Below, piece after piece: positions 3,060 to 20,985 of a DNA stretch of 64,000 nucleotides (position 1 is its first letter; every line of letters starts with the position of its first letter). A program made the translations under genes and the position numbers. Source of the DNA: Tepidamorphaceae bacterium (GTDB taxonomy: Bacteria > Pseudomonadota > Alphaproteobacteria > Rhizobiales > Tepidamorphaceae); contig JANQNT010000031.1 in assembly GCA_028279445.1 (NCBI GenBank), positions 1-64,000 of the forward strand. The letters run 5' to 3'. The notes below the pieces were generated by a model. The model did no database searches. It saw only the letters and a list, made by a program, of their open reading frames with translations, and was not told the origin of the DNA.

Positions 3060-6000
3060 ATGAGCGATAGCGGCGGCTGGCAATTCTGGGTGGACCGCGG
3101 CGGCACCTTTACCGACATCGTCGCGATGCGCCCCGACGGCAGCCTTCAGCATGAAAAGGTGCTCTCGGAGAATCCCGAGCGCTATCGGGATGCGGCCGTC
3201 TTCGGCATTCGCTCGATCCTTGGTCTTGGCCCTGACGACGCCGTGCCGGAAGGCATGATCGGGTCGGTGAAGATGGGCACGACGGTGGCCACCAATGCCT
3301 TGCTTGAGCGCAAGGGCGAGCGGACGCTGCTGGCGATCACGCGTGGGTTTCGCGATCTGCTGCGCATCGGCCACCAGAACCGCCCCGACATCTTCGCCCT
3401 GCAGATCAAGCTGCCCGAGTTGCTCTATGAACGCGCCATCGAAGTGGACGAGCGGCTCGATGCGGCAGGCGAGGTGATTTGCGCATTGGACGAGGCGCGG
3501 GCGGAGGAGGCGCTGCGTGCGGCTTATGACGACGGCATTCGGTCGGTCGCCATCGCGCTGATGCACGCCTATACCAATCCGGTCCATGAGATGTGTGTTG
3601 CCGAGATCGCGCGCCGGATCGGTTTCACGCAGATTTCCACCAGCGCCGGTGTCAGCCCGCTGGTCAAGCTGATCGGGCGGGGCGATACGGCGGTGGTCGA
3701 CGCCTATCTCAGTCCTATCCTGCGCCGCTATGTGGCCCAGGTGGCGGATGCACTGGGCGCGGATCGTGGCGCATGCCGGCAACTGCTGTTCATGCAGTCC
3801 AACGGGGGGCTGACCGATGCCTCCCTGTTCCAGGGCAAGGACGCGATCCTGTCCGGCCCGGCCGGCGGTGTCGTCGGTATGGTGGAAACCGGCCGGCGTG
3901 CCGGCTTCGACCGGCTGATCGGCTTCGACATGGGTGGCACCTCGACCGATGTCTGCCACTTCGCGGGCAGCTACGAGCGCAGCTTCGAGACGGAGGTTGC
4001 CGGCGTGCGGTTGCGCGCGCCGATGATGGACATTCACACGGTCGCCGCCGGGGGCGGTTCGATACTGTCGTTCCGCAACGGACGCATGCAGGTGGGACCG
4101 GAGAGCGCCGGCGCCAATCCCGGCCCGGCCTGCTATCGCCGTGGCGGACCGTTGACCGTCACCGACTGCAATATCCTGCTGGGCAAGATCCAGGTCGACT
4201 ACTTTCCCGCCGTGTTCGGTGTTGATGGCGATCAGCCGCTCGATGCGGCCGTGGTGCGCGAGAAGTTCGGGGAACTCGCCCGTCAGATCGCCGAGGAGAC
4301 GGGCGACGAGCCCAAGAGCCCCGAGCAGCTCGCCGAAGGCTTCCTGCGCATCGCCGTGGAGAACATGGCCAATGCGATCAAGAAGATCTCCGTCCAGCGC
4401 GGCTACAACATCACCGCCTATACGCTGAACAGTTTCGGCGGCGCCGGCGGGCAGCACGCCTGCCTGGTCGCCGATACGCTGGGCATGAAGCGCGTCTTGC
4501 TCAACCCCTTCGCGGGCGTGCTGTCGGCGCTCGGCATGGGGCTGGCCGAGATACGCAGCCTGCGCCAGCATCAGCTCGATCGACCGCTCGGCGAGATCGC
4601 GGCGGCGCATTCGGTGTTAGATGCGCTGCGGCGCGATGCGGTCGCCGAAGTCGCCGCGCAGGGCATCGAGGCGGAGCAAATCGCCTGCGTCAGCCGGGCG
4701 CATCTTCGCTACGCGGGATCGCACCAGACGCTTGAGGTCGCCGTCGACGATCCGGCCGCCATGGCGGGAGCATTCGAGCGGCTGCACAAGGCCCAGTTCG
4801 GCTTCGTGCCGTGCGGCCGCGAGATGGTCATCGACACGCTCGACGTGGAGGCCATCGGCCAGACCAGCCGGCCCGATGCCCTGGGCGTCGATTGCGCCGA
4901 GACCGAGCCTGAGCCCGACGCCCGCGTGGAGATGACATCGGGTGGTCAACGCCATGCGACGCCGATCTACAAGCGCGAGACGTTGCTGGCCGGACAGCGC
5001 ATTCAGGGCCCTGCGATCATTGCCGAAGCCATCGGAACCAGTGTCGTCGAGGATGGCTGGACGGCGGACGTCGACGCTCTCGGCAATCTGGTGCTCGAGC
5101 GCACGCAGGACCGGCAGGGCCTGGAGGATATCGGCGCGCAAGCCGATCCGGTGATGCTGGAGGTCTTCTCCAACCTGTTCATGTCGATCGCCGAGCAGAT
5201 GGGAGCAACGCTCGCCAACACCGCCTATTCGGTCAACATCCGCGAGCGGCTCGACTTCTCCTGCGCCCTGTTCGACATGCACGGTAACCTGGTCGCTAAC
5301 GCGCCGCACGTTCCGGTCCATCTGGGATCGATGAGCGAATCCGTGCGCACCGTGATCGAGCAGAACGCCGGCGCGATCAGGCCCGGCGACGTGTTCATGC
5401 TCAACGCCCCGTTCAACGGCGGCACCCACTTGCCCGACGTGACCGTGGTCACGCCCGTCTTCGATGCCGCCGGAACGCAGATCCTGTTCTACGTCGGCTC
5501 GCGGGGACACCATGCCGACATCGGTGGCAAGACGCCCGGATCGGCTCCTCCCGACAGCACGCATATCGAGGACGAAGGCGTGCTGATCGACAATTTCAAA
5601 CTCGTCGATCGTGGCCAACTGCGCGAGGCCGAAGCGCGCGCCCTGCTTGGATCAGGCCGCTGGCCGTGCCGCAATCCTGATGAGAACATGGCTGATCTGA
5701 CCGCGCAGATCGCCGCCAACGAGACCGGTGTGCGCGAAGTCGGCCGGATGATCGATCAGTTCGGGCTGGATGTCGTGCAGGCCTACATGCGGCATGTGCA
5801 GGCGAATGCCGAAGCCTCGGTGCGCCGCGTCATCGCCGCGCTCAAGGACGGCAGCTTCACCTATCCGCTGGACAACGGTTCCATGATCCAGGTGGCGATC
5901 CGGGTGGACCATGAGACGCAAAGCGCCCAGATCGACTTCACCGGCACGTCGCCGCAGGATCCGGGCAATTACAATGCGCCGCTATCGGTCTGCCGGGCCG

Positions 6001-6671
6001 TTGTGCTCTACGTGTTCCGCACACTTGTGGGTGCCGATATCCCGCTGAACGAAGGCTGTTTCGCACCGCTGGAGATCACCGCGCCCGAGGGCACCATGAT
6101 CAACCCCGTCTATCCGGCTGCCGTCATCGCCGGCAACACCGAGGTCAGCCAGGCCATCGCCGATACACTCTATGGCGCGCTCGGTGTCATTGCCGGTTCG
6201 CAGGGCACCATGAACAACTTCGTGTGGGGCAATGAGCGCATCCAGAACTACGAAACGATCTGCGGCGGTTCGGGCGCCGGCCCGGATTTCGACGGCACCG
6301 ATGCGGTTCACTCGCACATGACCAATACGCGCCTGACCGATCCGGAGGTGCTGGAGTGCCGCTTCCCCGTGCGCGTCAAGGAGTTCTCGATCGCGCAAGG
6401 CACCGGCGGTTCCGGCCGGCACGCCGGCGGCAACGGCGTTCGCCGGACGCTGCACTTCCTGGACACGATGTCGGTGACGACACTTAGCTCGCATCGCATC
6501 GTTCCGCCCCACGGGCTGGAGGGCGGAGAGCCGGGGGCCTGTGGAGAGAACACGGTGGTTCGGCGCGATGGCCGCCGGGAGGAACTCGCAGGTAACGACT
6601 CGATACTGGTCGAGCCGGGCGACGAGGTTACGATCCGTACGCCCGGCGGTGGCGGCTTTGGCCACCGATAG
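3060..6671 (+). CDS. Fused hydantoinase/5-oxoprolinase family protein (HyuA-HyuB)
   Basis: A 1203-residue fusion of the two subunits found separately as N-methylhydantoinase HyuA/HyuB or acetophenone carboxylase. Residues about 1-690 form the HyuA ATPase half, with [13 protein letters not shown] near the N-terminus, [14 protein letters not shown], and the phosphate-binding [11 protein letters not shown]. Residues about 700-1203 form the HyuB half, with [14 protein letters not shown] and a Gly-rich C-terminus ending TPGGGGFGH. Members use ATP to open cyclic amides (5-oxoproline, hydantoins) or to carboxylate ketones. The start is fixed by a GAGGAGA box 7 bp upstream. The gene stands alone on the plus strand and ends 14 bp before the convergent permease gene. 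A 5-oxoprolinase role is the default, but the neighbours do not settle it. Confidence 0.85.
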
Positions 6672-6685
6672 CTGGCCCCGAATGC

Positions 6686-8263
6686 CTACTTCTGATCGGC
6701 GCGGCGGAAGGCCCCCTGCACGATCCGGTCGATGACCATCGCCACGAACAGGATCGCGAACCCGCCCAGCAGGCCCGGCCCCTTGGCGGCGAATTGCAGC
6801 GCCTCCAGGATGACCTTGCCCAGTCCGCCGCCACCGATCAGCGAGATGATGACGACCATCGACAGGCACATCAGGATCGTCTGGTTCACCCCGGTCATGA
6901 TCGAGGGCAGGGCGAGCGGCAGTTCCACATCCTTCAGCAGTTGCCAGCGCGATGCGCCGAACGCGGTCGCGGCTTCCTTGATGGTGTCTGGCACGCCGCG
7001 CATGCCGAGCGCGGTGAGGCGGATCACCGGCGGCATGCCGAAGATGATCGTTGCCAGAATGCCTGGAGGATTGCCGGTGCCGAAAAAGGCGATGATCGGG
7101 ATCAGATAGACGAAGGCCGGCAGCGTCTGCATCAGGTCGAGCACCGGCTCGGAGAACCGGTAGGCCCGCCGTGACTTGCCGAACCATATGCCGAGCGGAA
7201 TGCCGATAACGACGCAAAGCACCACCGCGGCGCCGACCAGCGCCACCGTCTCCATGGCGATCTCCCAGTAGCCGAGCAGTGCGATATAGGCCAGCGCGGC
7301 GGCGGTGAAGATCGCCACGCGCGGCCCCGCCGCGCGCCAGGCGAAGACGCAGATCACCGCCATCACCACGGGCCATGGGGTGCCGATCAGGGCGAGCGAG
7401 ATGGTGTCGAGGATCTGCCGCACCGCCAGCACGATGCCATCGAAGGCCCCCGCACCGCTGCGGGCGGCATCGTCGATCAACGCCTCCAGCCAGCGCGCCG
7501 TCTCGCCGTAGTGGTCCGGGTTGGCGGGAAACGCCGTCAACCAGTCCGGCACGTTCTCGATGGTGAACCGGTAGACGGTCAGTGGCATGATGACGAGGCC
7601 TAGTATCACGCCGAAGACGATGTTCGGCGTGCGGAAGCCCGAGGGCACCTCGTCGGGCTCCACGCGCCAGCGCGAGTATTGCTTCTCGTAGACGACGTTC
7701 GACCAGACGCCCTGCACCACGCGCAGGACGAGCAGAAGCACCAGCCCGGACACGAGGATCATGAAGGCATCGGCGGCGGCTGCTTCCGCCGTCTCGCGGC
7801 TGCGCTCGGCAGCGCGCATCAGGTTGCCCCCCAGGGTCTCGAACCGGCTTGGGTCCTCGCCTGCGTCACGGGCCGCCTGCGCCTGGCGCAGGAACTCCTC
7901 GGCGCGGGCGGTCTGGCGTTCGGCCAGCGCCATGGCGTCGGCGCCCAGTTCGCCCCATGTGCCGCGTCCGATCTGCACCCAGGCGACGATCTCGAAGATC
8001 AGAAATGCCCAGAAGAAGCCCCAGATGCCGCGCGCGGCGGCCCAGAACGGGCCGAACGCGGCAGCCGCCCAGTTGAAGACGCGCGGGATGCCGGTCGTCG
8101 TGTCGTGAATGGTGTGAAACGCTTTTGCGTAATAGGCCGGGTTGCGGTCGACGAACGCGGCGATGGACTGGTCCAGCTCCTGGCGGTCGACCTCGATGTC
8201 CTTGACCGAGGACGCCGTGGCGTTCGGGTTCGTGTCGTCGGTGGACGGGGCTTGAATGTTCAT
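6686..8263 (-). CDS. Glycine-betaine/proline-type ABC permease (ProW-like) with long N-terminal extension
   Basis: This inner-membrane permease has 525 residues, against roughly 280-350 for usual ProW. The C-terminal half (about 290-525) is the binding-protein-dependent permease domain, with the EAATAFGASRWQLLKDVELP coupling loop. Before it, residues about 1-60 are polar, 60-110 resemble a DUF2628-type membrane segment (FGPFWAAARGIWGFFWAF), and about 115-165 form an Ala/Glu/Arg-rich predicted coiled coil. Further membrane helices follow. The start overlaps the ATPase stop as TGATG. It is the last gene of the operon with ProV, ProX, the racemase, the aminotransferase and the sulfo-lyase. The fold suggests a quaternary-amine or zwitterion substrate; the context suggests an aminosulfonate. 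Confidence 0.85.
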   Translation of the reverse strand: MNIQAPSTDDTNPNATASSVKDIEVDRQELDQSIAAFVDRNPAYYAKAFHTIHDTTTGIPRVFNWAAAAFGPFWAAARGIWGFFWAFLIFEIVAWVQIGRGTWGELGADAMALAERQTARAEEFLRQAQAARDAGEDPSRFETLGGNLMRAAERSRETAEAAAADAFMILVSGLVLLLVLRVVQGVWSNVVYEKQYSRWRVEPDEVPSGFRTPNIVFGVILGLVIMPLTVYRFTIENVPDWLTAFPANPDHYGETARWLEALIDDAARSGAGAFDGIVLAVRQILDTISLALIGTPWPVVMAVICVFAWRAAGPRVAIFTAAALAYIALLGYWEIAMETVALVGAAVVLCVVIGIPLGIWFGKSRRAYRFSEPVLDLMQTLPAFVYLIPIIAFFGTGNPPGILATIIFGMPPVIRLTALGMRGVPDTIKEAATAFGASRWQLLKDVELPLALPSIMTGVNQTILMCLSMVVIISLIGGGGLGKVILEALQFAAKGPGLLGGFAILFVAMVIDRIVQGAFRRADQK

Positions 8264-9291
8264 CACCGGCCTCCCTGGATGCCGCGCAGCAATGTCGTCT
8301 TGGTGATGACGCCGACGTCCTTGCCAGCCTCGGTGACGACGAGCGGGTGGTCGCTGCCAACAGAGATGTCGATCAGCGAATCGAGATCCTGTTCGCCGTC
8401 GACACGGATGGCATCGGCTGAGGCCGCGCCGTTCTTGAGCGGCTCCATGATGGTGTGCGCGCGCACCAGCTTCAGCCGCGAGATGCCCTGCACGAAGTCG
8501 CGCACGTAGTCGTCGGCGGGCTTGGTGACGATTTCCTCGGGTGTGCCGATCTGGACGATGACGCCATCCTTCATGATCGCGATGCGGTGGCCGATGCGGA
8601 TCGCCTCGTCGAGGTCGTGGGTGATGAACAGCGTGGACTTGTTCAGGTCGCGCACCAGCGCCTTGAACTGGTCCTGCAATTGCAGGCGGATCAGCGGGTC
8701 GAGCGCCGAGAACGGCTCGTCCATGAGCAGGATTTCGGGGTCGCTTGCCAGCGCGCGGGCGATGCCGACGCGCTGCTGCATGCCGCCGGAGAGCTCCTTG
8801 GGAAGCCGGTCCTCATAGCCGGTCAGGTCGACCAGGCCGAGGGTGTAGTCGGAAATCGCCCAGCGCTTGGATTTGGGAATTCGGCGGATCTCAAGCGGAT
8901 AGGCGACGTTCTCGCGCACCGAGCGGTGCGGCATCAGCGCCATGTGCTGGAAGACCATGCCGATGTGGCGGGCGCGCATCTGGCGCAGCTCGGTCTTGCC
9001 CATGGCGCCGACATCCTCGCCGAGCACCTTGATGGAGCCCGCGCTGGGCTCGATCAGCCGGTTCACATGCCGAACGAGGGTCGACTTGCCGGAACCAGAC
9101 AGGCCCATGATGCAGAAGATCTCACCGCGCGCGACCGCGAAGGACGCATCGCGCACACCGATGACGGTCTGGTACTTCTCCAGTGCATCGGCCTTGGACA
9201 GTTCGGAGCGTTCAGCTTCGGCGATCGTCTCATCGGCGCGCTCACCAAACACTTTCCAGACATTGGACAGTTCGACGACGGTCTCAGCCAT
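8263..9291 (-). CDS. Glycine-betaine/proline-type ABC ATPase (ProV-like)
   Basis: This 342-residue cytoplasmic ATPase has Walker A GLSGSGKST (about 69-77), signature LSGGMQQRVGIARAL, Walker B EILLMDEPFSALDP and the H-loop FITHD. A C-terminal CBS-like part (about 275-342) with HPLVVTEAGKDVGVI is typical of ProV/OpuAA, where it senses ionic strength. The insert between strands one and two (ADETIAEAERSELSKADALE) is also characteristic. I chose ATG at 9291 over the in-frame TTG at 9303 because a GAGGT box precedes it. It powers the ProX/ProW system encoded on either side. Confidence 0.9.
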   Translation of the reverse strand: MAETVVELSNVWKVFGERADETIAEAERSELSKADALEKYQTVIGVRDASFAVARGEIFCIMGLSGSGKSTLVRHVNRLIEPSAGSIKVLGEDVGAMGKTELRQMRARHIGMVFQHMALMPHRSVRENVAYPLEIRRIPKSKRWAISDYTLGLVDLTGYEDRLPKELSGGMQQRVGIARALASDPEILLMDEPFSALDPLIRLQLQDQFKALVRDLNKSTLFITHDLDEAIRIGHRIAIMKDGVIVQIGTPEEIVTKPADDYVRDFVQGISRLKLVRAHTIMEPLKNGAASADAIRVDGEQDLDSLIDISVGSDHPLVVTEAGKDVGVITKTTLLRGIQGGR

Positions 9292-9331
9292 GGGACCTCG
9301 CAAGGAAAGCTGGAGTGGTCTTTCGACCTCT

Positions 9332-9398: not shown

Positions 9399-10361
9399 TC
9401 AGTTGGTCAGCCAGCTGAGCACAACGTCCTGGTTCTTGGCGACCCAGTCCTTTGCGTATTCCTCAACGTCGCGATCCTTGACGGAGAGTTCGTAACCCGC
9501 CTCGCTGAGCACTTCCGGCGGCATCTTGTAGTTGTCGAGCATCGCGGCGACTTCCGGGAATTTCTCGCGGATGGCGGCCGAATAGTGCAGGTGCAGCGTT
9601 GCGCCTTTCCATGCCGTCGAGGCTTCCGACTTCTCCAGCCATTGCGGATCGTCGGTCGGCTGGATGATCGTCCAGGTCGCCGGATCGTGCGCCGGCTCTT
9701 CCAGATAGACGAGATCGTAGGCGACGAAGATGAAGTGCGGCTCGTAGCAGAAGCCCATCCACGGCTCGTCCGCGGTCGCGGCGGCGCCCAGTTCGCCCCA
9801 GGCGACGGTGCCGTCGTATTCCTTCAGCTCCATGGTCTGGTCGTAGCCGTAGGACTTGGCCCGGATCTTCTCGATCACGGTCGACGCCCAGCCCGGTGCG
9901 CCGATCCACACTTCCGGCGTGCCGTTACCGTCCTTGTCGAAGACCTTCATCTTGTCGGGATCGGTCAGGTCATTGATCGAGGTGATGCCGTAGGTATCGG
10001 CGGTGTGCTTGGTCACGCACATGCCCTGCACGGCCTGAACGGGATTTTCGTTCATGACCACCGACTTGTTTTCGTTGACGTATTTGTTGTGCAGGTTGAT
10101 CTGGTTGGGCAGCCAGACTTCCGGATGCAGGTGCATCGAGCCGGCATCCATGGCTTCGAAGATGATCGGGTTGGTGCCGCTCTGCAGCTCGACTTTAAGG
10201 CCGAAGTTCTCCTCGATGACGACCTTGAGAATGTTGGAGGTGGCGTTGGCGGCGGGCCAGTTCGGCACGCCCAGGACAAGATCGGCGGCCTGAGCCGCCC
10301 CGGCCGTGCCCATCGAGACGAGGGCGCTGGCCAGCAGCAGTCTGGTTTTGCTGTTCAGCAT
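9399..10361 (-). CDS. Glycine-betaine-type substrate-binding protein (ProX/OpuAC family)
   Basis: This 320-residue periplasmic protein has a Sec signal peptide that cleaves after AQA (about residue 26). The mature part begins ADLVLGVPNWPAANATSNILK, the start typical of the OpuAC quaternary-ammonium-binding fold. Many Trp and Tyr residues (for example PEVWLPNQ, WMGFCYEPHF, ATWTIIQP) could build a cation-pi cage. ATG at 10361 is preferred to upstream starts because the signal peptide follows directly and AAAGGAA lies upstream. It overlaps the racemase stop by 7 bp, so the importer belongs to the sulfo-lyase operon. The ligand is unproven: glycine betaine-like, or an aminosulfonate zwitterion. 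Confidence 0.88.
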   Translation of the reverse strand: MLNSKTRLLLASALVSMGTAGAAQAADLVLGVPNWPAANATSNILKVVIEENFGLKVELQSGTNPIIFEAMDAGSMHLHPEVWLPNQINLHNKYVNENKSVVMNENPVQAVQGMCVTKHTADTYGITSINDLTDPDKMKVFDKDGNGTPEVWIGAPGWASTVIEKIRAKSYGYDQTMELKEYDGTVAWGELGAAATADEPWMGFCYEPHFIFVAYDLVYLEEPAHDPATWTIIQPTDDPQWLEKSEASTAWKGATLHLHYSAAIREKFPEVAAMLDNYKMPPEVLSEAGYELSVKDRDVEEYAKDWVAKNQDVVLSWLTN

Positions 10362-11143
10362 TGGAGTTGTTCCTTTCCCTGGTGGTCGGTTTTGGTTTGC
10401 ATGGAGGCAGCGCTCGACCCGCGCGCCGCCCCTCTGGCAGGATGATGACCTCTCGCGTAAGCAACGCACGCTTCGGCCAGCGCATCAAGCGTATCGAATA
10501 GCGGATTGACGGCGCGCAGGTTTTGCGCCAGCACCGAAAACTCCGTGCAGCACACCATGACGACGTCTGCACCGTGCTCCGCCAGGTGATCCGCGGCCCG
10601 CTGCAAGGCGGCGACCGCATCCGCCGAGATGCCGTGTTTCTTGACGCCGCGGATGATGGCGAGGCGCTCCTCGGCGTCCTGGCCATGGACCGGGACCAGT
10701 CCGGCCCACTCCAGGGGACGCTGGAACACGCCTGTCTGCGCCAGTGCGGGCGATCCGAGGACGCCGATCCGCGCGCCGGCCCCGGTCAGGGCGCGGGCCT
10801 TTGCGGCGGCGAGCTCGACCATGTTCAGGAATGGCACGGACACTGCGTCGGTGATCGCGTCCGCATAGCAATGGGCGGTGTTGCAGGGCATCGCCAGCGC
10901 TTCGGCGCCGGCGTCCTCCAGGCCGCGCCCCATGGCGGCCAGTACGGGGCCGGGGTCTTCGCCGTCGCCGTCGATCAGCGCCTTGATGCGCGAGGGCACC
11001 TGCGTGTTGTTGTGGACGATGAGCGGGATGTGGTCGGCGTCGTCGTCCGCCGGCACGATGTCGACCATCTTCTGCATGAAGAGGATGGTGGCTTGCGGGC
11101 CCATGCCACCCAGAACGCCGATGGTCGCCTTGGCCGGTGTCAT
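10355..11143 (-). CDS. Aspartate/glutamate racemase family protein; candidate cysteate racemase
   Basis: This 262-residue PLP-independent amino-acid racemase-like protein shows GVLGGMGPQATI (residues 9-20), the first catalytic-Cys motif MPCNTAH (Cys87) and the second VCCTEF (Cys199). Both match aspartate racemase rather than MurI or hydantoin racemase. It overlaps the aminotransferase stop by ATGA. The last about 28 residues are a Ser/Gln-rich extension made by read-through into the next gene's leader. Cysteate is the sulfonate analogue of aspartate, and the gene lies in the cysteate sulfo-lyase operon, so interconversion of D- and L-cysteate is a reasonable inference. Plain aspartate racemase remains possible. 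Confidence 0.8.
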   Translation of the reverse strand: MTPAKATIGVLGGMGPQATILFMQKMVDIVPADDDADHIPLIVHNNTQVPSRIKALIDGDGEDPGPVLAAMGRGLEDAGAEALAMPCNTAHCYADAITDAVSVPFLNMVELAAAKARALTGAGARIGVLGSPALAQTGVFQRPLEWAGLVPVHGQDAEERLAIIRGVKKHGISADAVAALQRAADHLAEHGADVVMVCCTEFSVLAQNLRAVNPLFDTLDALAEACVAYARGHHPARGAARGSSAASMQTKTDHQGKEQLQC

Positions 11144-12342
11144 GCGGCGCCATCCATCGACATTTGCGAGAGCGTATGGGCGATGATCCGCGCGATGTGC
11201 TCGCAGTCACCCAGAGTGAACGTGAGCGGGATGCGCATGTCGAACAGACCGGCCAGGAGCCGATCGGTCTTCGCAAGCTGTTGCGGCTCGATATAGGTCC
11301 AACTGTGGTGGTTGGAGGTGTAGCCGACGGGATTGTCATCGCCGAACCACTTCAGTTCCACGCCCAGCGCCTTGTTGGCGTCGACGAACGCCCGCGCCGC
11401 GCCCGGCTCGGCCCAGGGCAGACGAAACTGGATCGAGCTGCCGACATAGAACTCGGAGCGATGGCGGTTCGGCAGGACGACGCCCGGGATATCGGCGAGG
11501 TGGCTGGCGAGCAGGTCGTATCGCGCGTTCCAGCGGGCGATATTCTCGTCGAGCGCGGCCAGTTGGGGCAGCAGGATCGCCGCGCGCAGGTTGTCCATGC
11601 GCCCGGACATGTTGGGCGTTTCGAGCCGGATCGTGTCGAAGATTTCCCTGGGCGGGGCGGCGCCGTGGCGCTCATAGAGCATGTAGGAGCCCGACAGCAC
11701 GATGGCGCGGGCCATGAATTCGGCATTATCCGACGTCAGCAGTCCGCCCTCGCCGGAGTTCAGGTGCTTGTAGGTCTGGGTCGAGAAGCATCCGGCCAGG
11801 CCGAAGCTGCCGCTGAGCCTTCCGTTCCAGCGCGCACCCATCGTATGGGCGCAGTCTTCCAGCAGCAGCACGCCGGACGCATCGAGCAGGGCGACCAGCG
11901 CGTCCATGTCGCACAGATGGCCGCGCATGTTCGACAACAGCAGCACCCTGGCGCCGCTCGATGTGATCTTGCTGCGCAGATCGTCGAGGTCGATGACGAG
12001 GTCGTCGGTGATGTCGACCAGCACCGGATTGGCGCCGACGCTTGCGATCGCGCCGGGTACGGGCGCGAGCGTGAACCCGTTGGTCAGGACATTGTCGCCC
12101 GGCGCGACGCCGGCAGCCCGCAGCGCAAGCGACATTGCGTAGCCGCCGGACGCGCAGGCCAGGCAGTAGCTGGCTCCCTGATAGTCCGCATAGGCGCGCT
12201 CCAGCCGGGAGACCACGCTGGGCTCATCGCCATCGGTGTTGTAGCGGTGCAGGCGGCCGCCGCGCATCACCTCGCCGGCGGCCGCGATGGCCGCTTCGGG
12301 TATGGCTTCCTGCTGGGTGAAGTTGCCGCGGAACGGGGTCAA
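11140..12342 (-). CDS. DegT/DnrJ/EryC1-family PLP aminotransferase
   Basis: This 400-residue fold-type-I PLP enzyme is assigned to the DegT/EryC1/StrS family. Features include the cofactor-phosphate-binding CASGGYAMSLAL (about 63-74), the Asp of LLLEDCAHTMGA (Asp163) and the Schiff-base Lys192 in STQTYKHLNSGEGG. Most relatives aminate keto-sugars, yet no sugar pathway genes lie nearby. It starts at TTG, 13 bp before the sulfo-lyase stop, with a GGAGG box at good spacing. Its place between a cysteate lyase and a racemase suggests transamination of an aminosulfonate (for instance cysteate to sulfopyruvate, which would feed the sulfolactate genes next door). This is inference from context only. 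Confidence 0.82.
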   Translation of the reverse strand: MTPFRGNFTQQEAIPEAAIAAAGEVMRGGRLHRYNTDGDEPSVVSRLERAYADYQGASYCLACASGGYAMSLALRAAGVAPGDNVLTNGFTLAPVPGAIASVGANPVLVDITDDLVIDLDDLRSKITSSGARVLLLSNMRGHLCDMDALVALLDASGVLLLEDCAHTMGARWNGRLSGSFGLAGCFSTQTYKHLNSGEGGLLTSDNAEFMARAIVLSGSYMLYERHGAAPPREIFDTIRLETPNMSGRMDNLRAAILLPQLAALDENIARWNARYDLLASHLADIPGVVLPNRHRSEFYVGSSIQFRLPWAEPGAARAFVDANKALGVELKWFGDDNPVGYTSNHHSWTYIEPQQLAKTDRLLAGLFDMRIPLTFTLGDCEHIARIIAHTLSQMSMDGAA

Positions 12343-12354
12343 CAGCGCCTCCGC

Positions 12355-13380
12355 TTACTCGGCGGCCTGCACGGCCGGCCTGTCGTAGCCGAAGGCGCCG
12401 GTGTAGCCGAACAGCGCGACCGCGCCGCCGGTGTGCAGGAAGACGATGTTCTCGTCGCCAGCAAATTCGCCCTTCCTGATCAGGTCGACCAACCCGGCGC
12501 CTCCCTTGCCGGAGTAGACCGGGTCCAGGAGTATACCTTCAAGCCGCGCGAACATCTCAATGGCCTGCAGACATTCCGGCGTCGGGATGCCGTAGCCCTC
12601 GCCGACATAGTCAGTGTTGGCCACAATGTCGTCGCGTGCAACCACGCCGGGGCAACCGAGTTTCTCGGCCGTTGCGATGGCCAGGTTGTAGACGTTCTCC
12701 TCCTGCTTTGGCCTGGGCGCGCGCACGCCGATGCCGAGCAGGGGAATGTCGGCGTTGATGGCCTTGAGGCCGACGATGAGACCAGCCTGCGTGCCCGCGC
12801 TGCCGGTCGCATGGACGATCCGGTCGATCTTCAGACCCATTGCGTTGGCTTGCTGCACCAGTTCCATGGCGGCATTGGCATAGCCCAATGCGCCGGTCGG
12901 GTTCGATCCGCCGCCGGGGATGGTGTAGACGTTGCGCCCCTTTGCCCGGAATGTCTCGGCGACCGCCTCCATCTCCGCGTTCATGTCGAGACCACCGGGG
13001 CGCTTTTCCGCCGTGGCGCCATGCAGATAATCGAGGAAGACGTTGCCGTTGGTGTTGTAGTCGACGTCGTTCGATCCCGTCCGGTCCTCCAGCAGGATGT
13101 GGCAGTCCATGCCCATGCGCGCTGCGAAGGCCGCCGTCTGGCGGGCGTGGTTGGATTGGGTCGCGCCCTGGGTGATGACAAGGTCTGCGCCCTGGGCCGC
13201 GGCCTCCGCCATCAGGAATTCCAGCTTTCGCGTCTTGTTGCCGCCCGTCGACAGCCCCGTGCAATCGTCCCGCTTGATCCACACGCGCGGTCCGCCAAGC
13301 GTTTCCGACAGCCTGTCCATGGGCTCGAGCGCGGTTGGCAGATGTGCCAGGTGCACCCGCGGAAAACGCGAAAAATGCAT
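12355..13380 (-). CDS. cuyA: L-cysteate sulfo-lyase (D-cysteine desulfhydrase homologue)
   Basis: This 341-residue fold-type-II PLP enzyme cleaves L-cysteate to pyruvate, ammonium and sulfite if it is CuyA. The PLP lysine is Lys49 in [24 protein letters not shown] forms the phosphate cup, and [10 protein letters not shown] and [14 protein letters not shown] follow the ACC-deaminase/D-cysteine desulfhydrase pattern. Residues CTGLSTGG rather than the enteric DcyD VTPMAMGG, the divergent LysR gene and the adjoining sulfolactate locus favour CuyA. ATG at 13380 has GGAGGTGA upstream; longer in-frame starts run into the LysR operator. It is the first gene of a six-gene operon. D-cysteine desulfhydrase is the alternative. 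Confidence 0.78.
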
Positions 13381-13461
13381 GGAAGTCACCTCCGGGTCCG
13401 TTCTTTTGCGCACTCTTGCATTGCCTTTCACGAGGTTCAAATGCAATTTTCGTGGCAGATC

Positions 13462-13476
13462 ATGCAGGACCTGCAT
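13462..13476. promoter_or_regulatory. LysR-type box between cuyA and its regulator
   Basis: ATGCAGGACCTGCAT is a perfect 7+1+7 palindrome containing a T-N11-A core. It lies 17 bp before the LysR start and 81 bp before cuyA. A second inverted pair, TTGCAT at 13416-13421 and ATGCAA at 13441-13446, lies closer to cuyA. The arrangement fits a recognition site with a weaker activation site. Confidence 0.7.
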
Positions 13477-13493: not shown

Positions 13494-14399
13494 ATGAGGA
13501 TTGACTGGCTTGAGGACATCATCGCGCTGCTCGACACCGGCTCGGTGGTCGAGGCGGCGGCGATGCGCAATGTTTCGCAATCGGCTTTCTCGCGGCGCAT
13601 TCAGACCCTGGAGGTGCTGCTCGATGTCGGGCTGATCGACAGGCGCTCGAAGCCGAACCGCCCGACGGCCGCCCTGCGCAATCACGAGGAAGCGTTGCGG
13701 CAGGCCGCGCGCCAGCAGCGCAGCCTGATCAAGCAGATCCAGACCGAGAGCCGTTCGGGATCGGAGCTCGTGGTCGTTGCATGCCAGCATGCGATCACGG
13801 CCTCGCTGGGGCCGCAGATCGTGAAGCTGATCGCCGGCGCGGGAAAGGCGCATGTGCGTCTGCGTTCGGCCAACCGCAACGAATGCGAGGCGCTGCTGCT
13901 GACCGGGCAGGCGGACTTTTCCATCACCTACGGTATGGAGGCCGACGCGGCAGGGCACCGGGCCGCGATGACTGACGAGGCCTTCATCGCCAACGAACGG
14001 CTGATTCCGGTCTATCGGGCGCCGGCGGTCGAGGAGATGCTCGTGCGCTTCGAGGCGGGCAATCTCGATGTGATTGCCTATCCCGCCGACGTCTTCCTGG
14101 GCATCGCCGTGGAACGGCACATCTACCCGCACATCGAGCGTGAGTGCCGCCTCAACATCGTCGCGGAGACGGCGCTGACCCTGGCAGCCAAGCAGATGGC
14201 CTCAGCGGGCGTCGGCGTTGCCTGGGTTCCGGAAGCGCTGGCGCAAGCCGATCTCGGCGACGAGCGGCTCAGCGATCTCAGCGGGCAATTGGGCAGTCTG
14301 GGCATGCAGATCGTCGCCCGCAAACGCGCCGAGGACACCACGGACCTGCACACCCGCATCTGGGATGAACTCTCCCGCAGCGGCGCTGTCGCTCCTTAG
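13494..14399 (+). CDS. cuyR: LysR-family regulator of the cuyA operon
   Basis: This 301-residue regulator has an N-terminal winged helix-turn-helix (about 3-62, with [24 protein letters not shown]) and a substrate-binding effector domain from about residue 90 ([20 protein letters not shown]). It is divergent from cuyA across 113 bp holding a T-N11-A palindrome. The effector domain presumably senses an aminosulfonate or a product. The name cuyR is used by analogy with the divergent LysR gene described next to cuyA in marine alphaproteobacteria; identity is inferred from position. It converges with the GntR gene 40 bp further on. Confidence 0.82.
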
Positions 14400-15232: not shown

Positions 15233-15268
15233 ATTGGCAACACCGTCCAACCAAGAGTGAGAAACAAG

Positions 15269-15559
15269 ATGTCCGAGATTCCCCATCTTCTCGTGCATGA
15301 GCATGCCGACAATGTCGGTGTGGTCGTGGTCGAGGGGCTGACGGCCGGCACCGACATGCTGTGCTGTGTCACCCATGACAACTCCACCTTCCGCCTGCAG
15401 GCCGGTGCCGATGTGCCGATCGGGCACAAGATCGCGCTGAAGGACTTCAAGGAGGGCGACACGGCGATCAAGTACGGCGAGGACATCGGCAAGATCATCG
15501 CCGGCATCCCGAAGGGCGGCCACGTCCACACGCACAACTGCAAGACCAAGCGCTGGTAG
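15269..15559 (+). CDS. suyA: (2R)-sulfolactate sulfo-lyase, small subunit (SAF domain)
   Basis: This 96-residue protein consists of one SAF domain, the N-terminal part of the altronate dehydratase family made as a separate subunit. Visible features are [18 protein letters not shown], the IPxGHK-like [12 protein letters not shown] and the end [14 protein letters not shown]. In split form it pairs with the large subunit encoded 11 bp downstream. In Paracoccus SuyAB this pair cleaves sulfolactate to pyruvate and sulfite. The alternative, altronate dehydratase, is less likely because no uronate genes are present while a sulfolactate-type dehydrogenase and TTT importer follow. Start at ATG 15269; the GTG at 15257 lacks a ribosome site. 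Confidence 0.78.
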
Positions 15560-15570
15560 GGGTAAAGGCA

Positions 15571-16752
15571 ATGGCATCGAAATACGCGAACATGACGGTC
15601 AAGGGCTACCGTCGCGAGAACGGCCGGGTCGGCGTGCGCAACCACGTCGTCATCCTGCCGGTGGACGACATCTCCAACGCCGCCTGCGAGGCGGTCGCCA
15701 ACAATGTGAAGGGCACGCTGGCCATTCCGCACGCCTACGGGCGCTTGCAGTTCGGCGAGGACCTTGAGCTGCATTTCCGTACCATGATCGGCACCGGATC
15801 GAACCCCAACGTCGCCGCGGTGGTGGTCATCGGCATCGAGCCGGGCTGGACCAAGCGCATCGCCGACGGCATCCGCGAGACCGGCAAGCGCGTGGCCGAG
15901 TTCTCCATCGAGCAGAAGGGCGACTTCGAGACCATCCGCGCCGCAAGCTGGGCCGCCAAGGACTTCGTCCACTGGGCGACCGAACTGCAGCGCGAGGAAT
16001 GCTCGGTCTCCGAGCTCTGGGTCTCCACCAAGTGCGGCGAGAGCGACACCACCACGGGACTGGGTTCCTGCCCGACGGTCGGCAACATGTACGACAAGCT
16101 GCTTCCCGAAGGCATCACGGGCTTCTTCGGCGAAACCTCCGAGATCACCGGCGCTGAGCACATCTGCCAGAAGCGGGCGATCAACGAAGAGGTCGGGGAG
16201 CGCTGGCACGCGATGTGGAAGGCCTATCAGGACGACGTGATCTTCGCCCACCAGACCGACGATCTCTCCGACAGCCAGCCCACCAAGGGCAACATCGAGG
16301 GTGGACTGACCACGATTGAGGAGAAGGCGCTCGGCAATCTGGAGAAGATCGGTCGCACGTCGCAGTACATCGACATTCTCGACCCCGCCGAGAGCCCCAA
16401 GTCCGGCAACGGGCTGTACTTCATGGACTCCTCTTCGGCCGCGGCGGAATGCGTCACGCTGATGGCCGCCGGCGGCGCGGTCATCCACACGTTTCCGACG
16501 GGGCAGGGCAATGTCGTCGGCAACCCGATCGTGCCGGTGATCAAGATCACCGCGAACCCGCGCACGGTGCGCACCATGGGCGAGCACATCGATGTCGACG
16601 TGTCCGGCATCCTGCGCCGCGAGAAGACCATCGACGAGGCCGGCGACGACCTGATCGAGGCGATCCGCCGCACGGCCAACGGCCGGTTCACCGCAGCCGA
16701 AGCGCTCGGTCATCGCGAGTTCTCGATGACCAAACTCTATCGTAGCGCCTGA
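15571..16752 (+). CDS. suyB: (2R)-sulfolactate sulfo-lyase, large subunit (UxaA-C family)
   Basis: This 393-residue catalytic subunit corresponds to the C-terminal UxaA/GarD domain. Family motifs include [19 protein letters not shown], the metal-ligand segment [11 protein letters not shown] (about 151-161) and [14 protein letters not shown] near the end. It would eliminate sulfite from sulfolactate in the cytoplasm, using a divalent iron-type cofactor as in the family. It forms an operon with suyA (11 bp) and slcC (2 bp). Assignment as SuyB rather than altronate dehydratase rests on the neighbours, not on a residue I can point to. Confidence 0.78.
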
Positions 16753-16754
16753 GG

Positions 16755-17684
16755 ATGCTGGTTGTTGTCACCGAGTTCATGGATCGCCCGGCACTGGAGC
16801 GCTTCGGCGACCATGTCCGGGTGGTCTACGAGCCGACCCTGGTCGACGACCGGGCGGCAACGCTGGCGGCTGTCGGCGAGGCTTCGGCGATCATCGTGCG
16901 CAACCGCACGCAAGTCGATGCGCAGCTTCTCGCTGCCGCCCCGGACCTGAAGGTGGTCGGCCGGCTCGGTGTCGGGCTCGACAACATCGATCTCGATCAG
17001 TGTGCCCAGCGTGGGGTGGCGGTCTGTCCGGCCACCGGCGCCAATACAAGGTCGGTGGCTGAATACGTCATCGCCACGACGATGATGCTGGTGCGCGGCG
17101 CGTTCCAGTCCAATGCCCGGATGATCGCGGGCGAATGGCCGCGCGGCCAACTCGGCACGGGCGGTGAGGTTGCCGGGCGGCGGCTGGGCCTGTTCGGGTT
17201 TGGCGCCATCGCGCGCGAAGTGGCGCGGCTGGCAGGTGGCCTCGGCCTTGAGGTATCGGCCTACGATCCGCACCTGCCGGGTGATCATCCCGCCTGGGAG
17301 AGCGTTCAGCGCTGTCCCTCGGACGAGCTTCTGGCCACGTCCGATGTCCTGAGCCTGCATGTCCCGCTGACGCCGGAAACCGAAAACCTGATCGATGCGC
17401 AGGTCATCGCCCGCATGAAGGCAGGTGCCGTCCTCATCAACACCGCGCGGGGCGGCATCGTCGACGAGGAGGCGCTTGTCGATGCGCTGCAAACTGGCCG
17501 GCTGGCGGGCGCGGCTCTAGATGTCTTTGCGCAGGAGCCGCTGAGCGCGGAGCGGGGCCGACTGTTTGCATCCGCGCCCAACCTGATACTGACGCCGCAT
17601 GTCGCGGGGGTCACCGAAGAGGGCAATGTCCGGGTCAGCCAATTGACCGTCGAAAATGTCATTCGCGTTCTGGAGGGCCATTGA
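16755..17684 (+). CDS. slcC: D-isomer-specific 2-hydroxyacid dehydrogenase, candidate (S)-sulfolactate dehydrogenase
   Basis: This 309-residue NAD-dependent dehydrogenase belongs to the SerA-like family. The nucleotide-binding GFGAIAREVARLAGGLGLEV sits near residue 153, followed by the Arg of NTARGGIVDEEAL and the catalytic His of LTPHVAGVTEEGN (Glu/His pair). The start overlaps the suyB end by 2 bp, so they are cotranscribed. In Chromohalobacter, SlcC oxidises (S)-sulfolactate to sulfopyruvate, and a second dehydrogenase (ComC) makes the (R)-isomer that SuyAB can cleave. No ComC-like gene lies in the window. A generic phosphoglycerate or glyoxylate reductase is the fallback reading. Confidence 0.75.
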   Translation: MLVVVTEFMDRPALERFGDHVRVVYEPTLVDDRAATLAAVGEASAIIVRNRTQVDAQLLAAAPDLKVVGRLGVGLDNIDLDQCAQRGVAVCPATGANTRSVAEYVIATTMMLVRGAFQSNARMIAGEWPRGQLGTGGEVAGRRLGLFGFGAIAREVARLAGGLGLEVSAYDPHLPGDHPAWESVQRCPSDELLATSDVLSLHVPLTPETENLIDAQVIARMKAGAVLINTARGGIVDEEALVDALQTGRLAGAALDVFAQEPLSAERGRLFASAPNLILTPHVAGVTEEGNVRVSQLTVENVIRVLEGH

Positions 17685-17950: not shown

Positions 17951-18910
17951 ATGATCAGAAAGACTTTGTTTGCGGCCATTGGTGTCGCTGCGCTCGGGCT
18001 GGCCGGGATGTCGGCCAATGCCGAGGAATTTCCGTCCAAGTCCGTCGACTACGTGATTCCATTCGGGCCGGGCGGTGAATCCGATATCACCGCGCGTTTC
18101 CAGCAGTCCTTCTTCAAGGACAAGTTCGGCCAGGAACTGGTCGTGTCCTACAAGCCCGGCGGTGGCGGTGCGGTCGGCTGGTCGCAGCTCAACTCGATGG
18201 CCGGCGATGGCCATTCGATCATGGGCATCAATCTGCCGCATATCATCGTCAAGCCGCGGCAGGGCGATGTGGGCTTCCAGACCGACGACATCACCGCCGT
18301 CTACATGTTCCACTACACGCCGGACGCGATTGTCGTGAACGCCGACAGCGATCTGAAGTCGCTGCAGGACCTGATCGACTACGCCAAGGCCTACCCCAAG
18401 CAGCTCACTTTCTCGGGCTCCGGCAAGGGCACCGCCAACCATCTGGCCCAGATCATCTTCGACCAGAAGGCCGGAATCGAGACGACCTACGTGGCGTTCA
18501 AGGGAACCGGCGCGTCGGTGACCGCGCTGCTCGGCAACCAGGTCAGTGCCCAGTGGGGCTACACGACGGTTGGTGCCAAGCAGGGCGACAAGGTGCGCCT
18601 GCTGGCGGTTGCCATGGAAGAGCGTCACCCGGCCTTCCCGGATGTTCCGACATTCAAGGAGCTTGGTTTCGACATGGTGTCGGGCGCCTATCGCGGCATC
18701 GCGGTGCCGAGTTCCACGCCTGAGGATATTCGCCAGAAGCTCTCCGGCATGATCGCCGAGATCAACGCCGACCCGGCCTTCCAGAAGCAGATGCTCGAAG
18801 GCGGCTTCGCCATGATGGACATCGGCTATGGCGCGGATCTGGACGCCTGGATGGCGGCCCGGACCGAGGACTATGTCGCCGCGGCGAAGAGCGCCGGCAT
18901 CATCGACTGA
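17951..18910 (+). CDS. slcH: TTT-family solute-binding protein (TctC/BugT-like), candidate sulfolactate receptor
   Basis: This 319-residue periplasmic receptor of the tripartite tricarboxylate transporter family has a signal peptide cleaving after ANA (about residue 24). The mature start EEFPSKSVDYVIPFGPGGESDITAR carries the FxxGGxxD ligand-loop signature, and LTFSGSGKGTANHLAQIIF is the second family motif. A GGAGGAG box precedes the ATG. The membrane component follows after a UUCG hairpin. In sulfolactate degraders the importer SlcHFG is of this type, which supports sulfolactate as ligand; other dicarboxylate- or sulfonate-like acids are possible. Confidence 0.82.
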   Translation: MIRKTLFAAIGVAALGLAGMSANAEEFPSKSVDYVIPFGPGGESDITARFQQSFFKDKFGQELVVSYKPGGGGAVGWSQLNSMAGDGHSIMGINLPHIIVKPRQGDVGFQTDDITAVYMFHYTPDAIVVNADSDLKSLQDLIDYAKAYPKQLTFSGSGKGTANHLAQIIFDQKAGIETTYVAFKGTGASVTALLGNQVSAQWGYTTVGAKQGDKVRLLAVAMEERHPAFPDVPTFKELGFDMVSGAYRGIAVPSSTPEDIRQKLSGMIAEINADPAFQKQMLEGGFAMMDIGYGADLDAWMAARTEDYVAAAKSAGIID

Positions 18911-18929
18911 TATCCAGCATCGACCGGAG

Positions 18930-18945
18930 CGGCCCTTCGGGGCCG
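18930..18945 (+). other. UUCG-tetraloop hairpin after the slcH-like gene
   Basis: CGGCCC-TTCG-GGGCCG is a compact 6-bp stem with the very stable UUCG loop, 20 bp after the receptor stop codon. A weak CCCC run rather than a T-tract follows, so read-through into the membrane gene at 19015 with higher receptor mRNA is expected. Confidence 0.55.
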
Positions 18946-19014
18946 TTCCCCCTCCGGTTGCCGCCGATGCTTGGTGCCTGAACGTCCAGAGTTCGGGTAC
19001 AACGGGGATTTGCC

Positions 19015-20985
19015 ATGTTCGAATATGTGCTATCGGCGTTCACGCCGCTGAACATCGCGCTGGCTCTCGCCGGAGTCGCGGCGGGAACCATCATCGGGTC
19101 GATCCCCGGACTGACGGCGACAATGGCCGTTGCGGTTCTGGTTCCGATCACTTTCTCGATGCCGGCCGACAGCGCGCTGATCCTGATGGGGGCGATCTAT
19201 ACCGGCGCCATCTACGGTGGCGCCTATGCCGCGATCCTGCTCAATACGCCGGGCACCCCATCGGCCATCGCCACGACCTTCGATGGCTATCCGATGGCCC
19301 GCAGGGGCGACGGGGATCTGGCGGTTTCGGTTGCCTGTCTGTCTTCGGTCGTCGGCGGTATCGTCGGGGCCATCGCCTTGCTGCTGCTGGCGCCGCCGCT
19401 GGCCGAGGCCGCCCTGGCGTTCGGGCCGGTTGAGTATTTCTGGCTGGCGATCTTCGGTCTTTCGCTGATCGCGGCCCTGTCGACGGGCGACTTCCTGAAA
19501 GGCGTGATCGCGGCGTGTTTCGGCCTGCTGATCTCGATGATCGGCATCTCCGAGACCAGCGCGGAGGTGCGTTTCACCTTCGGCTCGCAAACGCTGCTGG
19601 GCGGCATCGAGATCGTCTCGGCGCTGATCGGGCTTTATTGCATCCCCGTTCTCATAGACCTGGTCGCCACGCCGGCGCGCCATCTTGAAATGCCCGAGAA
19701 GGGCCGTGGGTTCCGGCTTCCCGAAGCGTTCGGCAAGCTGATGCTCAACAAGTTCAACGTGCTGCGCAGTTCGGTGATCGGTACGCTGGTCGGCGCGCTG
19801 CCGGGTGCCGGTGGGTCGATTGCCGGCCTGGTGGCCTATTCGGAGGCGCGGCGCACGGGCAAGGGCGACGAGAAGTACGGCGAAGGCAATCCTGGTGGCA
19901 TCGTTGCCACCGAGTCAGCCAACAACGCAACCGTCGGCGGCGGTTTCATTCCCACCCTGGTGCTCGGCATCCCCGGCACGCCGCCGGATGCGGTGATCCT
20001 CGGGGCGCTGCTGGTGCAGGGGGTCAAGACCGGTCCGACCCTGTTCGCCGAAGGCGCCAACATCGTCTACACGTTCATCTTCGGCCTGCTGCTGGCGACC
20101 ATCCTGATGCTGCCGGTCGGTCTGATGATCGGGCGCTTCGCCTATGGTGCGATCGTGCGTTCGCCCAAGGCGGTGCTCGTCCCGGTCGTCGCCTTCATGA
20201 CCGTGATCGGCACGTTCGCGATCCGCAACAGCATCTCCGACATCGCCATCATGGTGGTGCTGGGCATTATCGGCTGGATCGCCACCAAGCGGGGCTTTTC
20301 GGTTTCGCCCATCGTGCTCGGGCTGATCCTCGGGCGCATCGCCGAGCAGGGCTTCGTGCAGGGCTGGACGATCGGCGACGCGGTCGGCAATCTCTGGGGG
20401 CAGTTCTTCGGACGCCCGCTGTCGCTGGTCATCATCGCCATGACCCTGGTCAGTTTCCTCTATCCCTTCCTGCCGCAGATCAAGCGGCTGGTCATGCGAT
20501 CGAACCCCAACCCGGTGATCGAGCGCGATCCAGCTCCGATGAGCGCGGTGCTGCGCGACGGCATCTCGTTCCTGATCTTCGGGGCGGTCGCGCTGGTCGT
20601 CGTCGTGGAAAGCGCCTCGCTCAACCCCGATGCCGCGGTCTTTCCCAGAACGATTGCCATGGGGATGCTGGTTTTCGTCGCCGCTGCGCTCATCAAGCTC
20701 GTGCTGACGCGCGATGTGATCGAGGAGACAGCCGAAGGATCGGTTGTCCGGCGGATCGCGGTGCCGACCATCATGCTTGGCGGCGTGGCGCTGATATCGA
20801 CCCTCGGGTTTGGTGTGGCCGGTCTGCTGATGGGTGTGGCGCTGATGTTCGTCGCCCAGCACGGCAGGGCATCGCCTCAGTTCTGGCTGACGCTGACCGC
20901 TGGTGTCGTTATCACCATCCTGGTCTTCACCTTCGGCTTCCGGAACCTTCTCGCGGTGCCGTTGCCGGCAGGCTGGTTCCTGTAA
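19015..20985 (+). CDS. TTT-family membrane protein, TctA-TctB fusion
   Basis: This 656-residue integral membrane protein has a TctA part (about 1-500), with GAIYGGAYAAILLNTPGTPS and PGAGGSIAGLVAYSEARR as family motifs and about 12 helices. After the linker RSNPNPVIERDPAPMSAV, residues about 515-656 form the four-helix TctB subunit (FLIFGAVALVVVVESASL...). These two subunits are usually encoded by separate tctB and tctA genes, with TctB first; here TctB is at the C-terminus of TctA. With the receptor upstream it makes a complete secondary importer, probably the SlcFG counterpart. Confidence 0.85.
   Translation: MFEYVLSAFTPLNIALALAGVAAGTIIGSIPGLTATMAVAVLVPITFSMPADSALILMGAIYTGAIYGGAYAAILLNTPGTPSAIATTFDGYPMARRGDGDLAVSVACLSSVVGGIVGAIALLLLAPPLAEAALAFGPVEYFWLAIFGLSLIAALSTGDFLKGVIAACFGLLISMIGISETSAEVRFTFGSQTLLGGIEIVSALIGLYCIPVLIDLVATPARHLEMPEKGRGFRLPEAFGKLMLNKFNVLRSSVIGTLVGALPGAGGSIAGLVAYSEARRTGKGDEKYGEGNPGGIVATESANNATVGGGFIPTLVLGIPGTPPDAVILGALLVQGVKTGPTLFAEGANIVYTFIFGLLLATILMLPVGLMIGRFAYGAIVRSPKAVLVPVVAFMTVIGTFAIRNSISDIAIMVVLGIIGWIATKRGFSVSPIVLGLILGRIAEQGFVQGWTIGDAVGNLWGQFFGRPLSLVIIAMTLVSFLYPFLPQIKRLVMRSNPNPVIERDPAPMSAVLRDGISFLIFGAVALVVVVESASLNPDAAVFPRTIAMGMLVFVAAALIKLVLTRDVIEETAEGSVVRRIAVPTIMLGGVALISTLGFGVAGLLMGVALMFVAQHGRASPQFWLTLTAGVVITILVFTFGFRNLLAVPLPAGWFL

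What the first reader, a model, noticed from the sequence alone, without database searches (positions are those of the whole stretch)
10355..11143. Candidate cysteate racemase
An aspartate-racemase-like protein with both catalytic Cys motifs overlaps genes of the cysteate lyase operon. Cysteate differs from aspartate only by sulfonate for carboxylate. A racemase would let the cell use D-cysteate, for which I know no described route.
Basis: inference. Interest (0 to 1): 0.8.

Follow-up and report, generated by a model that had tools for sequence, protein, structure and literature searches.

The report
Cysteate racemase (CuyB) gene

Summary
The ORF is real: 10355-11143 (-), 262 aa, aspartate-racemase fold, both catalytic cysteines (C87, C199), overlapping both flanking genes. 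It scores 272.3 bits on NCBIfam NF052483 "cysteate racemase" CuyB (cut-off 190); cuyA, one gene upstream, scores 543.6 on NF052482 "D-cysteate sulfo-lyase" (cut-off 450). A cysteate racemase is therefore already described.

The survey adds support: the protein sits in a supported racemase clade (35 rows, 32 linked to cuyA). In 289 Alphaproteobacteria, the 13 genomes with an in-clade racemase all carry cuyA within 6 kb. cuyA-linked racemases have S or N (31 of 32) where 9 of 11 outgroup rows have D, next to a conserved Arg.

Less expected: the DegT-type aminotransferase between cuyA and cuyB. All 15 sampled genomes that carry it also carry the DHPS dehydrogenase HpsN (10 of 274 others do). It may be the sulfopyruvate/cysteate aminotransferase whose gene one paper calls unknown in Ruegeria pomeroyi. 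No activity was tested.

The parts
10355..11143 (-). cuyB: predicted cysteate racemase, 262 aa; catalytic Cys C87 and C199; S51-R52; K168
   Evidence: NF052483 272.3 bits, cut-off 190; PF01177 131.4 bits; residues; model m389556b96bb3
12355..13476 (-). cuyA: predicted D-cysteate sulfo-lyase (PLP); likely start at 13380 (Met33)
   Evidence: NF052482 543.6 bits, cut-off 450; HMM match begins at residue 33; upstream GGAGG
11140..12342 (-). DegT/DnrJ/EryC1-type PLP aminotransferase, 400 aa, K192 in KHLNSGEGG; substrate unknown, candidate cysteate/sulfopyruvate or cysteinolate aminotransferase
   Evidence: PF01041 192 bits; no NCBIfam cut-off met; motif; HpsN co-occurrence 15 of 15
9399..10469 (-). 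ABC transporter substrate-binding protein, betaine type; likely start 10361
   Evidence: PF04069 OpuAC 170.3 bits; start
8263..9303 (-). ABC transporter ATPase, ProV type
   Evidence: TIGR01186 336.9 bits, cut-off 326.6
6686..8266 (-). ABC transporter permease, ProW type
   Evidence: PF00528 94.9 bits; best NCBIfam hits choline/betaine permeases, below cut-off
13494..14399 (+). Divergent LysR-type regulator, possible regulator of the operon (inferred from place)
   Evidence: PF00126 and PF03466
15257..15559 (+). Small ORF before the dehydratase-type gene, SuyA-like by place and size (name recalled)
   Evidence: No Pfam match; assignment is inference
15571..16752 (+). SuyB-like (R)-sulfolactate sulfo-lyase subunit (name recalled; families shown are galactarate/altronate dehydratase type)
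   Evidence: PF20629 275.3 bits, PF04295 116.5 bits; no NCBIfam cut-off met
16755..17684 (+). 2-hydroxyacid dehydrogenase, SlcC-like by place (name recalled)
   Evidence: TIGR01327 281.8 bits, below its cut-off 454
17951..20985 (+). Tripartite tricarboxylate-type transporter (TctC 17951-18910; TctA with TctB 19015-20985)
   Evidence: PF03401, PF01970, PF07331

Best explanation
The gene encodes a member of the CuyB racemase clade that is predicted to convert L-cysteate to D-cysteate, likely to supply the D-cysteate sulfo-lyase CuyA encoded one gene upstream. Likely mechanism: two opposed cysteines (C87, C199) remove and re-add the alpha proton without a cofactor, as in aspartate racemase, while R52 and K168 hold the acidic side chain. 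CuyA (PLP) would then split D-cysteate into pyruvate, ammonia and sulfite. Shown here: sequence, family scores, gene order, clade, co-occurrence, model fold. Inferred: substrate, direction, residue roles, and that the betaine-type ABC transporter imports cysteate or a similar aminosulfonate.
For: NF052483 272.3 bits against a cut-off of 190, CuyA NF052482 543.6 against 450. PMC11382572 passages: CuyB interconverts L- and D-cysteate, CuyA prefers D. NCBI names a 54% identical relative 'cysteate racemase' (P0181, Marivita geojedonensis). Clade of 35 racemases, support 99/98, 32 linked to cuyA. In 289 class genomes, CuyB and CuyA over cut-off: 13 of 16 against 13 of 273, Fisher 4e-13; the 13 have both genes on one contig with gaps under 6 kb. 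S or N at position 51 in 31 of 32 cuyA-linked rows, D in 9 and G in 2 of 11 outgroup rows. Model fold best matches aspartate racemase 1JFL.
Against: No activity was tested. The protein also passes the generic amino acid racemase model TIGR00035 (139 bits, cut-off 93.1). One cuyA-linked in-clade racemase (L105) keeps D at position 51. Thirteen of 26 genomes with CuyA over cut-off have no CuyB over cut-off, so CuyA does not always need it. PMC10507020 (passages) still describes CuyA as an L-cysteate sulfo-lyase that can also act on D-cysteine, against the D-first view. Four racemases over the NF052483 cut-off (L103, L104, L108, L113) lie outside the clade and are not linked to cuyA, so the family score alone is loose. 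Only 2 of 8 genomes of the window's own family pass the CuyB cut-off. The primary CuyB paper was not held.
Confidence: 0.9

Rival explanations
1. It is an ordinary aspartate racemase that happens to lie in the cysteate operon.
For: Passes TIGR00035 amino acid racemase (139 bits, cut-off 93.1); closest solved structures are aspartate racemases; R52 and K168 equal R48 and K164 of the Pyrococcus enzyme.
Against: Scores twice as high on the CuyB model (272.3 bits); sits in a clade linked to cuyA in 32 of 35 rows that leaves out 1JFL and 5B19; has S51 where those have D.
Confidence: 0.06
2. The pair acts on cysteine: CuyA is a D-cysteine desulfhydrase and the racemase makes D-cysteine or another amino acid.
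For: CuyA also matches the D-cysteine desulfhydrase family TIGR01275 (324.8 bits, cut-off 289.4) and PDB 7YSK 'D-Cysteine desulfhydrase' (421.6 bits). PMC10507020 says CuyA can also act on D-cysteine (passage).
Against: CuyA passes NF052482 D-cysteate sulfo-lyase far over cut-off. Taurine-type (L029) or betaine-type transporters, suyB and hpsN lie in the clusters of relatives.
Confidence: 0.03
3. It is a hydantoin racemase working with the fused hydantoinase gene at 3060-6671.
For: Same Pfam family name PF01177; the hydantoinase-type gene lies next to the operon on the other strand.
Against: PDB hydantoin racemase 2EQ5 ranks only 25th (TM 0.65 by target length). In the nearest relatives L014 and L015 the operon runs on into hpsN instead.
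Confidence: 0.01

Closest known systems
CuyB cysteate racemase (NCBIfam NF052483; Liu et al. 2024, seen only as a citation)
   Same: Family score over cut-off, both cysteines, next to cuyA in the same operon
   Different: A DegT-type gene stands between cuyA and cuyB; C-terminal tail of about 30 residues beyond the model, predicted disordered
Aspartate racemase of Pyrococcus horikoshii (PDB 1JFL, 2DX7)
   Same: Fold (TM 0.91 by target), C82/C194, R48 and K164 equivalents kept
   Different: 33% identity; D47 is S51 here; outside the cuyA-linked clade
E. coli aspartate/glutamate racemase (PDB 5ELL, 5HRA)
   Same: Same superfamily fold
   Different: Thr in place of the first Cys in 5ELL, and no Arg at the R52 place in that alignment
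3-amino-5-hydroxybenzoate synthase (PDB 1B9H), nearest solved relative of the DegT-type neighbour
   Same: DegT-type PLP enzyme with an aligned lysine (109.8 bits)
   Different: Distant; only residues 38-321 match; no such biosynthesis genes were seen nearby

Membership tests
CuyB cysteate racemase (NF052483) | HMM score over the curated cut-off | tested here: met
   272.3 bits, cut-off 190
CuyB cysteate racemase (NF052483) | Two catalytic cysteines | tested here: met
   C87 and C199, the same in all 46 aligned rows
CuyB cysteate racemase (NF052483) | Linked to cuyA and inside the cuyA-linked clade | tested here: met
   cuyA one gene upstream; clade 99/98, 32 of 35 rows linked
CuyB cysteate racemase (NF052483) | Interconverts L- and D-cysteate | not testable with these tools
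   Needs an assay
CuyA D-cysteate sulfo-lyase (NF052482) | HMM score over the curated cut-off | tested here: met
   543.6 bits, cut-off 450
CuyA D-cysteate sulfo-lyase (NF052482) | Preference for D- over L-cysteate | not testable with these tools
   Stated for CuyA in PMC11382572 (passage); not tested here
Aspartate racemase | Generic amino acid racemase model TIGR00035 | tested here: met
   139 bits, cut-off 93.1
Aspartate racemase | Asp before the conserved Arg (D47 in 1JFL), as in the aspartate racemases aligned; a mark seen here, not a published definition | tested here: not met
   S51 in the window protein; D in 1JFL, 5B19, 3S7Z
Sulfopyruvate/cysteate aminotransferase (DegT-type neighbour) | PLP aminotransferase family with the lysine motif | tested here: met
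   PF01041 192 bits; KH-N-GEGG motif in 83 of 83 rows; lysine role recalled
Sulfopyruvate/cysteate aminotransferase (DegT-type neighbour) | Genomic tie to C3-sulfonate catabolism | tested here: met
   HpsN in 15 of 15 carriers against 10 of 274 others; CuyA in 8, SuyB in 5, Xsc in 10, any of these in 13 of 15
Sulfopyruvate/cysteate aminotransferase (DegT-type neighbour) | Transaminates cysteate or sulfopyruvate | not testable with these tools
   Needs an assay

The most novel reading that the evidence does not exclude
The DegT-type protein between cuyA and cuyB is the missing aminotransferase of C3-sulfonate catabolism: it joins sulfopyruvate (from DHPS and sulfolactate) to cysteate, so that cuyA-degT-cuyB, with hpsN, forms a DHPS-to-pyruvate-plus-sulfite route. 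A sister reading is that it transaminates cysteinolate, an algal osmolyte.
Probability: 0.4. Interest if true: 0.6.

Novelty: new member of a known kind. Interest (0 to 1): 0.35.

Why it matters
For the racemase: it extends a known step, the stereochemical adapter between L-cysteate and a D-preferring lyase, with a simple mark (S or N for D before the conserved Arg) that may separate true cysteate racemases from other racemases scoring over the same cut-off. For its neighbour: PMC11382572 calls the genes for the sulfopyruvate aminotransferase and for CuyB in Ruegeria pomeroyi unknown (passage); a DegT-type gene that was found only in genomes with HpsN (15 of 15) gives a concrete gene to test. 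DHPS and cysteinolic acid reach high levels in algae (PMC8703288 passages).

Tried and rejected
Sugar-nucleotide aminotransferase for the DegT-type gene: no NCBIfam cut-off was met, and the operon holds no sugar-nucleotide genes among those scanned. In 23 of 83 tree rows the gene lies in another setting, beside a phosphoglycolate-phosphatase-like gene with glmU and glmS in the example scanned; this did not explain its function. The cuyA-linked DegT rows are not one clade (10 changes on the tree, shuffled mean 21.9), so the link was gained or lost several times. Within the 25 HpsN genomes the DegT-type gene was not significantly tied to CuyA (8 of 15 against 2 of 10, p 0.21), which counts against a role in the CuyA branch alone. 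Two of 15 carriers (G200, 64% complete, and G202) have none of CuyA, SuyB or Xsc at my thresholds. A route to cysteinolate through a 2-keto product of HpsO/HpsP is weakened by PMC11131964, which places their chemistry on C3 (passages). Neighbours of eight cuyAB clusters without the DegT-type gene in the cluster were scanned (one or two genes each, with one DegT-bearing locus, L123): no aminotransferase among them. Literature: 'cysteate' with 'DegT' gave one unrelated paper (listing); a search on dihydroxypropanesulfonate, DegT, cuyA, hpsN gave 25 papers, 15 listed, and no listed one held DegT with dihydroxypropanesulfonate or hpsN. 'cysteate racemase' or 'CuyB' occurred in one of the 9 papers listed. 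Most subscription papers are not in that library.

Full report
Observation. The ORF at 10355-11143 (-) is present as described: 262 aa, PF01177 131.4 bits, with MPCNTAH (C87) and CCTEF (C199). Gene order on the minus strand is cuyA 12355-13476, DegT-type 11140-12342, this gene, then binding protein, ATPase and permease of an ABC transporter down to 6686. The gene overlaps the DegT-type gene by 4 nt and the likely binding-protein start by 7 nt. A divergent LysR gene starts at 13494. A second block that I read as sulfonate genes lies at 15257-17684 (+): SuyA-like and SuyB-like ORFs and a 2-hydroxyacid dehydrogenase, followed by a tripartite tricarboxylate-type transporter at 17951-20985. The suy and slc names are recalled; no call gave them.

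What it is. NCBIfam scores it 272.3 bits on NF052483 'cysteate racemase' CuyB (cut-off 190), and cuyA 543.6 on NF052482 'D-cysteate sulfo-lyase' (cut-off 450). It also passes the generic TIGR00035 (139, cut-off 93.1). The AlphaFold2 model (29-row alignment, mean pLDDT 88.8, residues 237-262 below 50) matches 1JFL best (TM 0.80 by query, 0.91 by target, rmsd 1.7).

Clade and residues. I used 46 racemase rows: 43 loci with a tblastn score of at least 60 bits and an ORF of at least 190 aa, plus segments of three PDB chains; loci below that were dropped. The maximum-likelihood tree puts 35 rows in one clade with support 99/98; 32 of them are linked to cuyA (linkage from the loci themselves, or for short class loci from coordinates). 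L103, L104, L108 and L113 pass the NF052483 cut-off but lie outside the clade and are not linked to cuyA, so that cut-off seems loose. At window position 51 the 32 linked rows have S 25, N 6, D 1 (L105); the 3 unlinked in-clade rows have S; the 11 outgroup rows have D 9, G 2. R52 and both cysteines are the same in all 46 rows, K168 in 45 (L110 has R). That R48 and K164 of the Pyrococcus enzyme, their equivalents, bind substrate carboxylates is recalled, not looked up.

Co-occurrence. In 289 genomes drawn evenly from the class, CuyB passes its cut-off in 16, CuyA in 26, both in 13 (Fisher 4e-13; without the window's own genome 12 of 15 against 13 of 273, 4e-12). In these 13 the genes lie on one contig with gaps under 6 kb. 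The three CuyB-only genomes (G038, G185, G281) carry the out-of-clade racemases L108, L104 and L103; G038 is 63% complete, and G185 has a CuyA-like hit below cut-off on another contig. Thirteen CuyA genomes lack CuyB. In the window's own family 2 of 8 genomes pass the CuyB cut-off. Of 14 control genomes, one passes for CuyB and one for CuyA; the output does not say which. The tests are not corrected for relatedness.

Literature. PMC11382572 (passages only) states that CuyB is a racemase interconverting L- and D-cysteate, with D-cysteate the preferred CuyA substrate, citing Liu et al. 2024 (not held) and Denger et al. 2009 (not held). It also says that the genes for the sulfopyruvate-to-cysteate aminotransferase and for CuyB in Ruegeria pomeroyi are unknown. 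PMC10507020 (passages) describes CuyA as an L-cysteate sulfo-lyase that can also act on D-cysteine.

The DegT-type neighbour. Within 6 kb, 18 of 80 have both cuyA and cuyB (one of them also suyB), 4 cuyA only, 3 cuyB only; 4 more have suyB within 7 kb; 51 have none, some of them on short contigs. A 436-aa protein encoded after cuyB in one Thioglobus locus (L054) matches the PDB (R)-DHPS dehydrogenase (8WWE, 583.1 bits) and CpHpsN (8V35, 535.5) far better than histidinol dehydrogenase (244.3). Its relatives lie in 18 of the 80 DegT loci, two of them cut by a contig or locus end, including the two nearest to the window (L014, L015), right after the permease.

Genome-wide, the DegT-type protein (E up to 1e-100) is in 15 of 289 genomes from 11 families, and all 15 have HpsN (E up to 1e-130), against 10 of 274 others (Fisher 7.5e-19). 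CuyA is in 8 of the 15, SuyB in 5, Xsc in 10, any of these in 13. Among the 13 genomes with linked cuyA and cuyB, the 5 with the DegT-type protein (G000, G035, G155, G161, G183) are exactly the 5 with HpsN; in G161 it lies elsewhere in the genome. The window's own genome has HpsN at C33:83530, about 20 kb beyond the window, with a LacI regulator, TRAP transporter, SDR and zinc-dehydrogenase genes.

This supports a job in C3-sulfonate catabolism; which amine it handles is open. Cysteate/sulfopyruvate fits the stated need for such an enzyme. Cysteinolate would fit a tie to HpsN rather than to CuyA, but no route was shown. HpsN binds L-cysteate as an inhibitor (PMC11382572 passages), which shows that its pocket takes an aminosulfonate.

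Verdict. Novelty of the racemase is low. The aminotransferase is the part worth a bench test.

Noticed in passing
window 11140-12342: DegT-type aminotransferase between cuyA and cuyB, found in 15 class genomes, all of which also carry HpsN.
   Followed up: partly
L103, L104, L108, L113: Racemases over the NF052483 cut-off that lie outside the cuyA-linked clade, keep D before the Arg and are not linked to cuyA: the curated cut-off may be too low.
   Followed up: partly
L137 (G000:C33:70000-89900): An hps-type operon (LacI regulator, TRAP transporter, HpsN, SDR, zinc dehydrogenase) on the window's contig, about 20 kb past the window end.
   Followed up: partly
L031, L036, L041, L058: In marine SUP05/Thioglobus-type Gammaproteobacteria the DegT-type gene lies near suyB without cuyA.
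   Followed up: no
L054:2870-6862, L086:3736-7866, L040:6428-7966: Trimethylamine-methyltransferase-like (MTTB) genes, and in L086 an FAD oxidoreductase fused to a GCV_T domain, lie beside the DegT-type or cuyA gene; a methylated aminosulfonate could be the real nutrient there.
   Followed up: no
window 3060-6671: Fused hydantoinase A/B (oxoprolinase type) gene, 1203 aa, at the end of the operon on the other strand.
   Followed up: no
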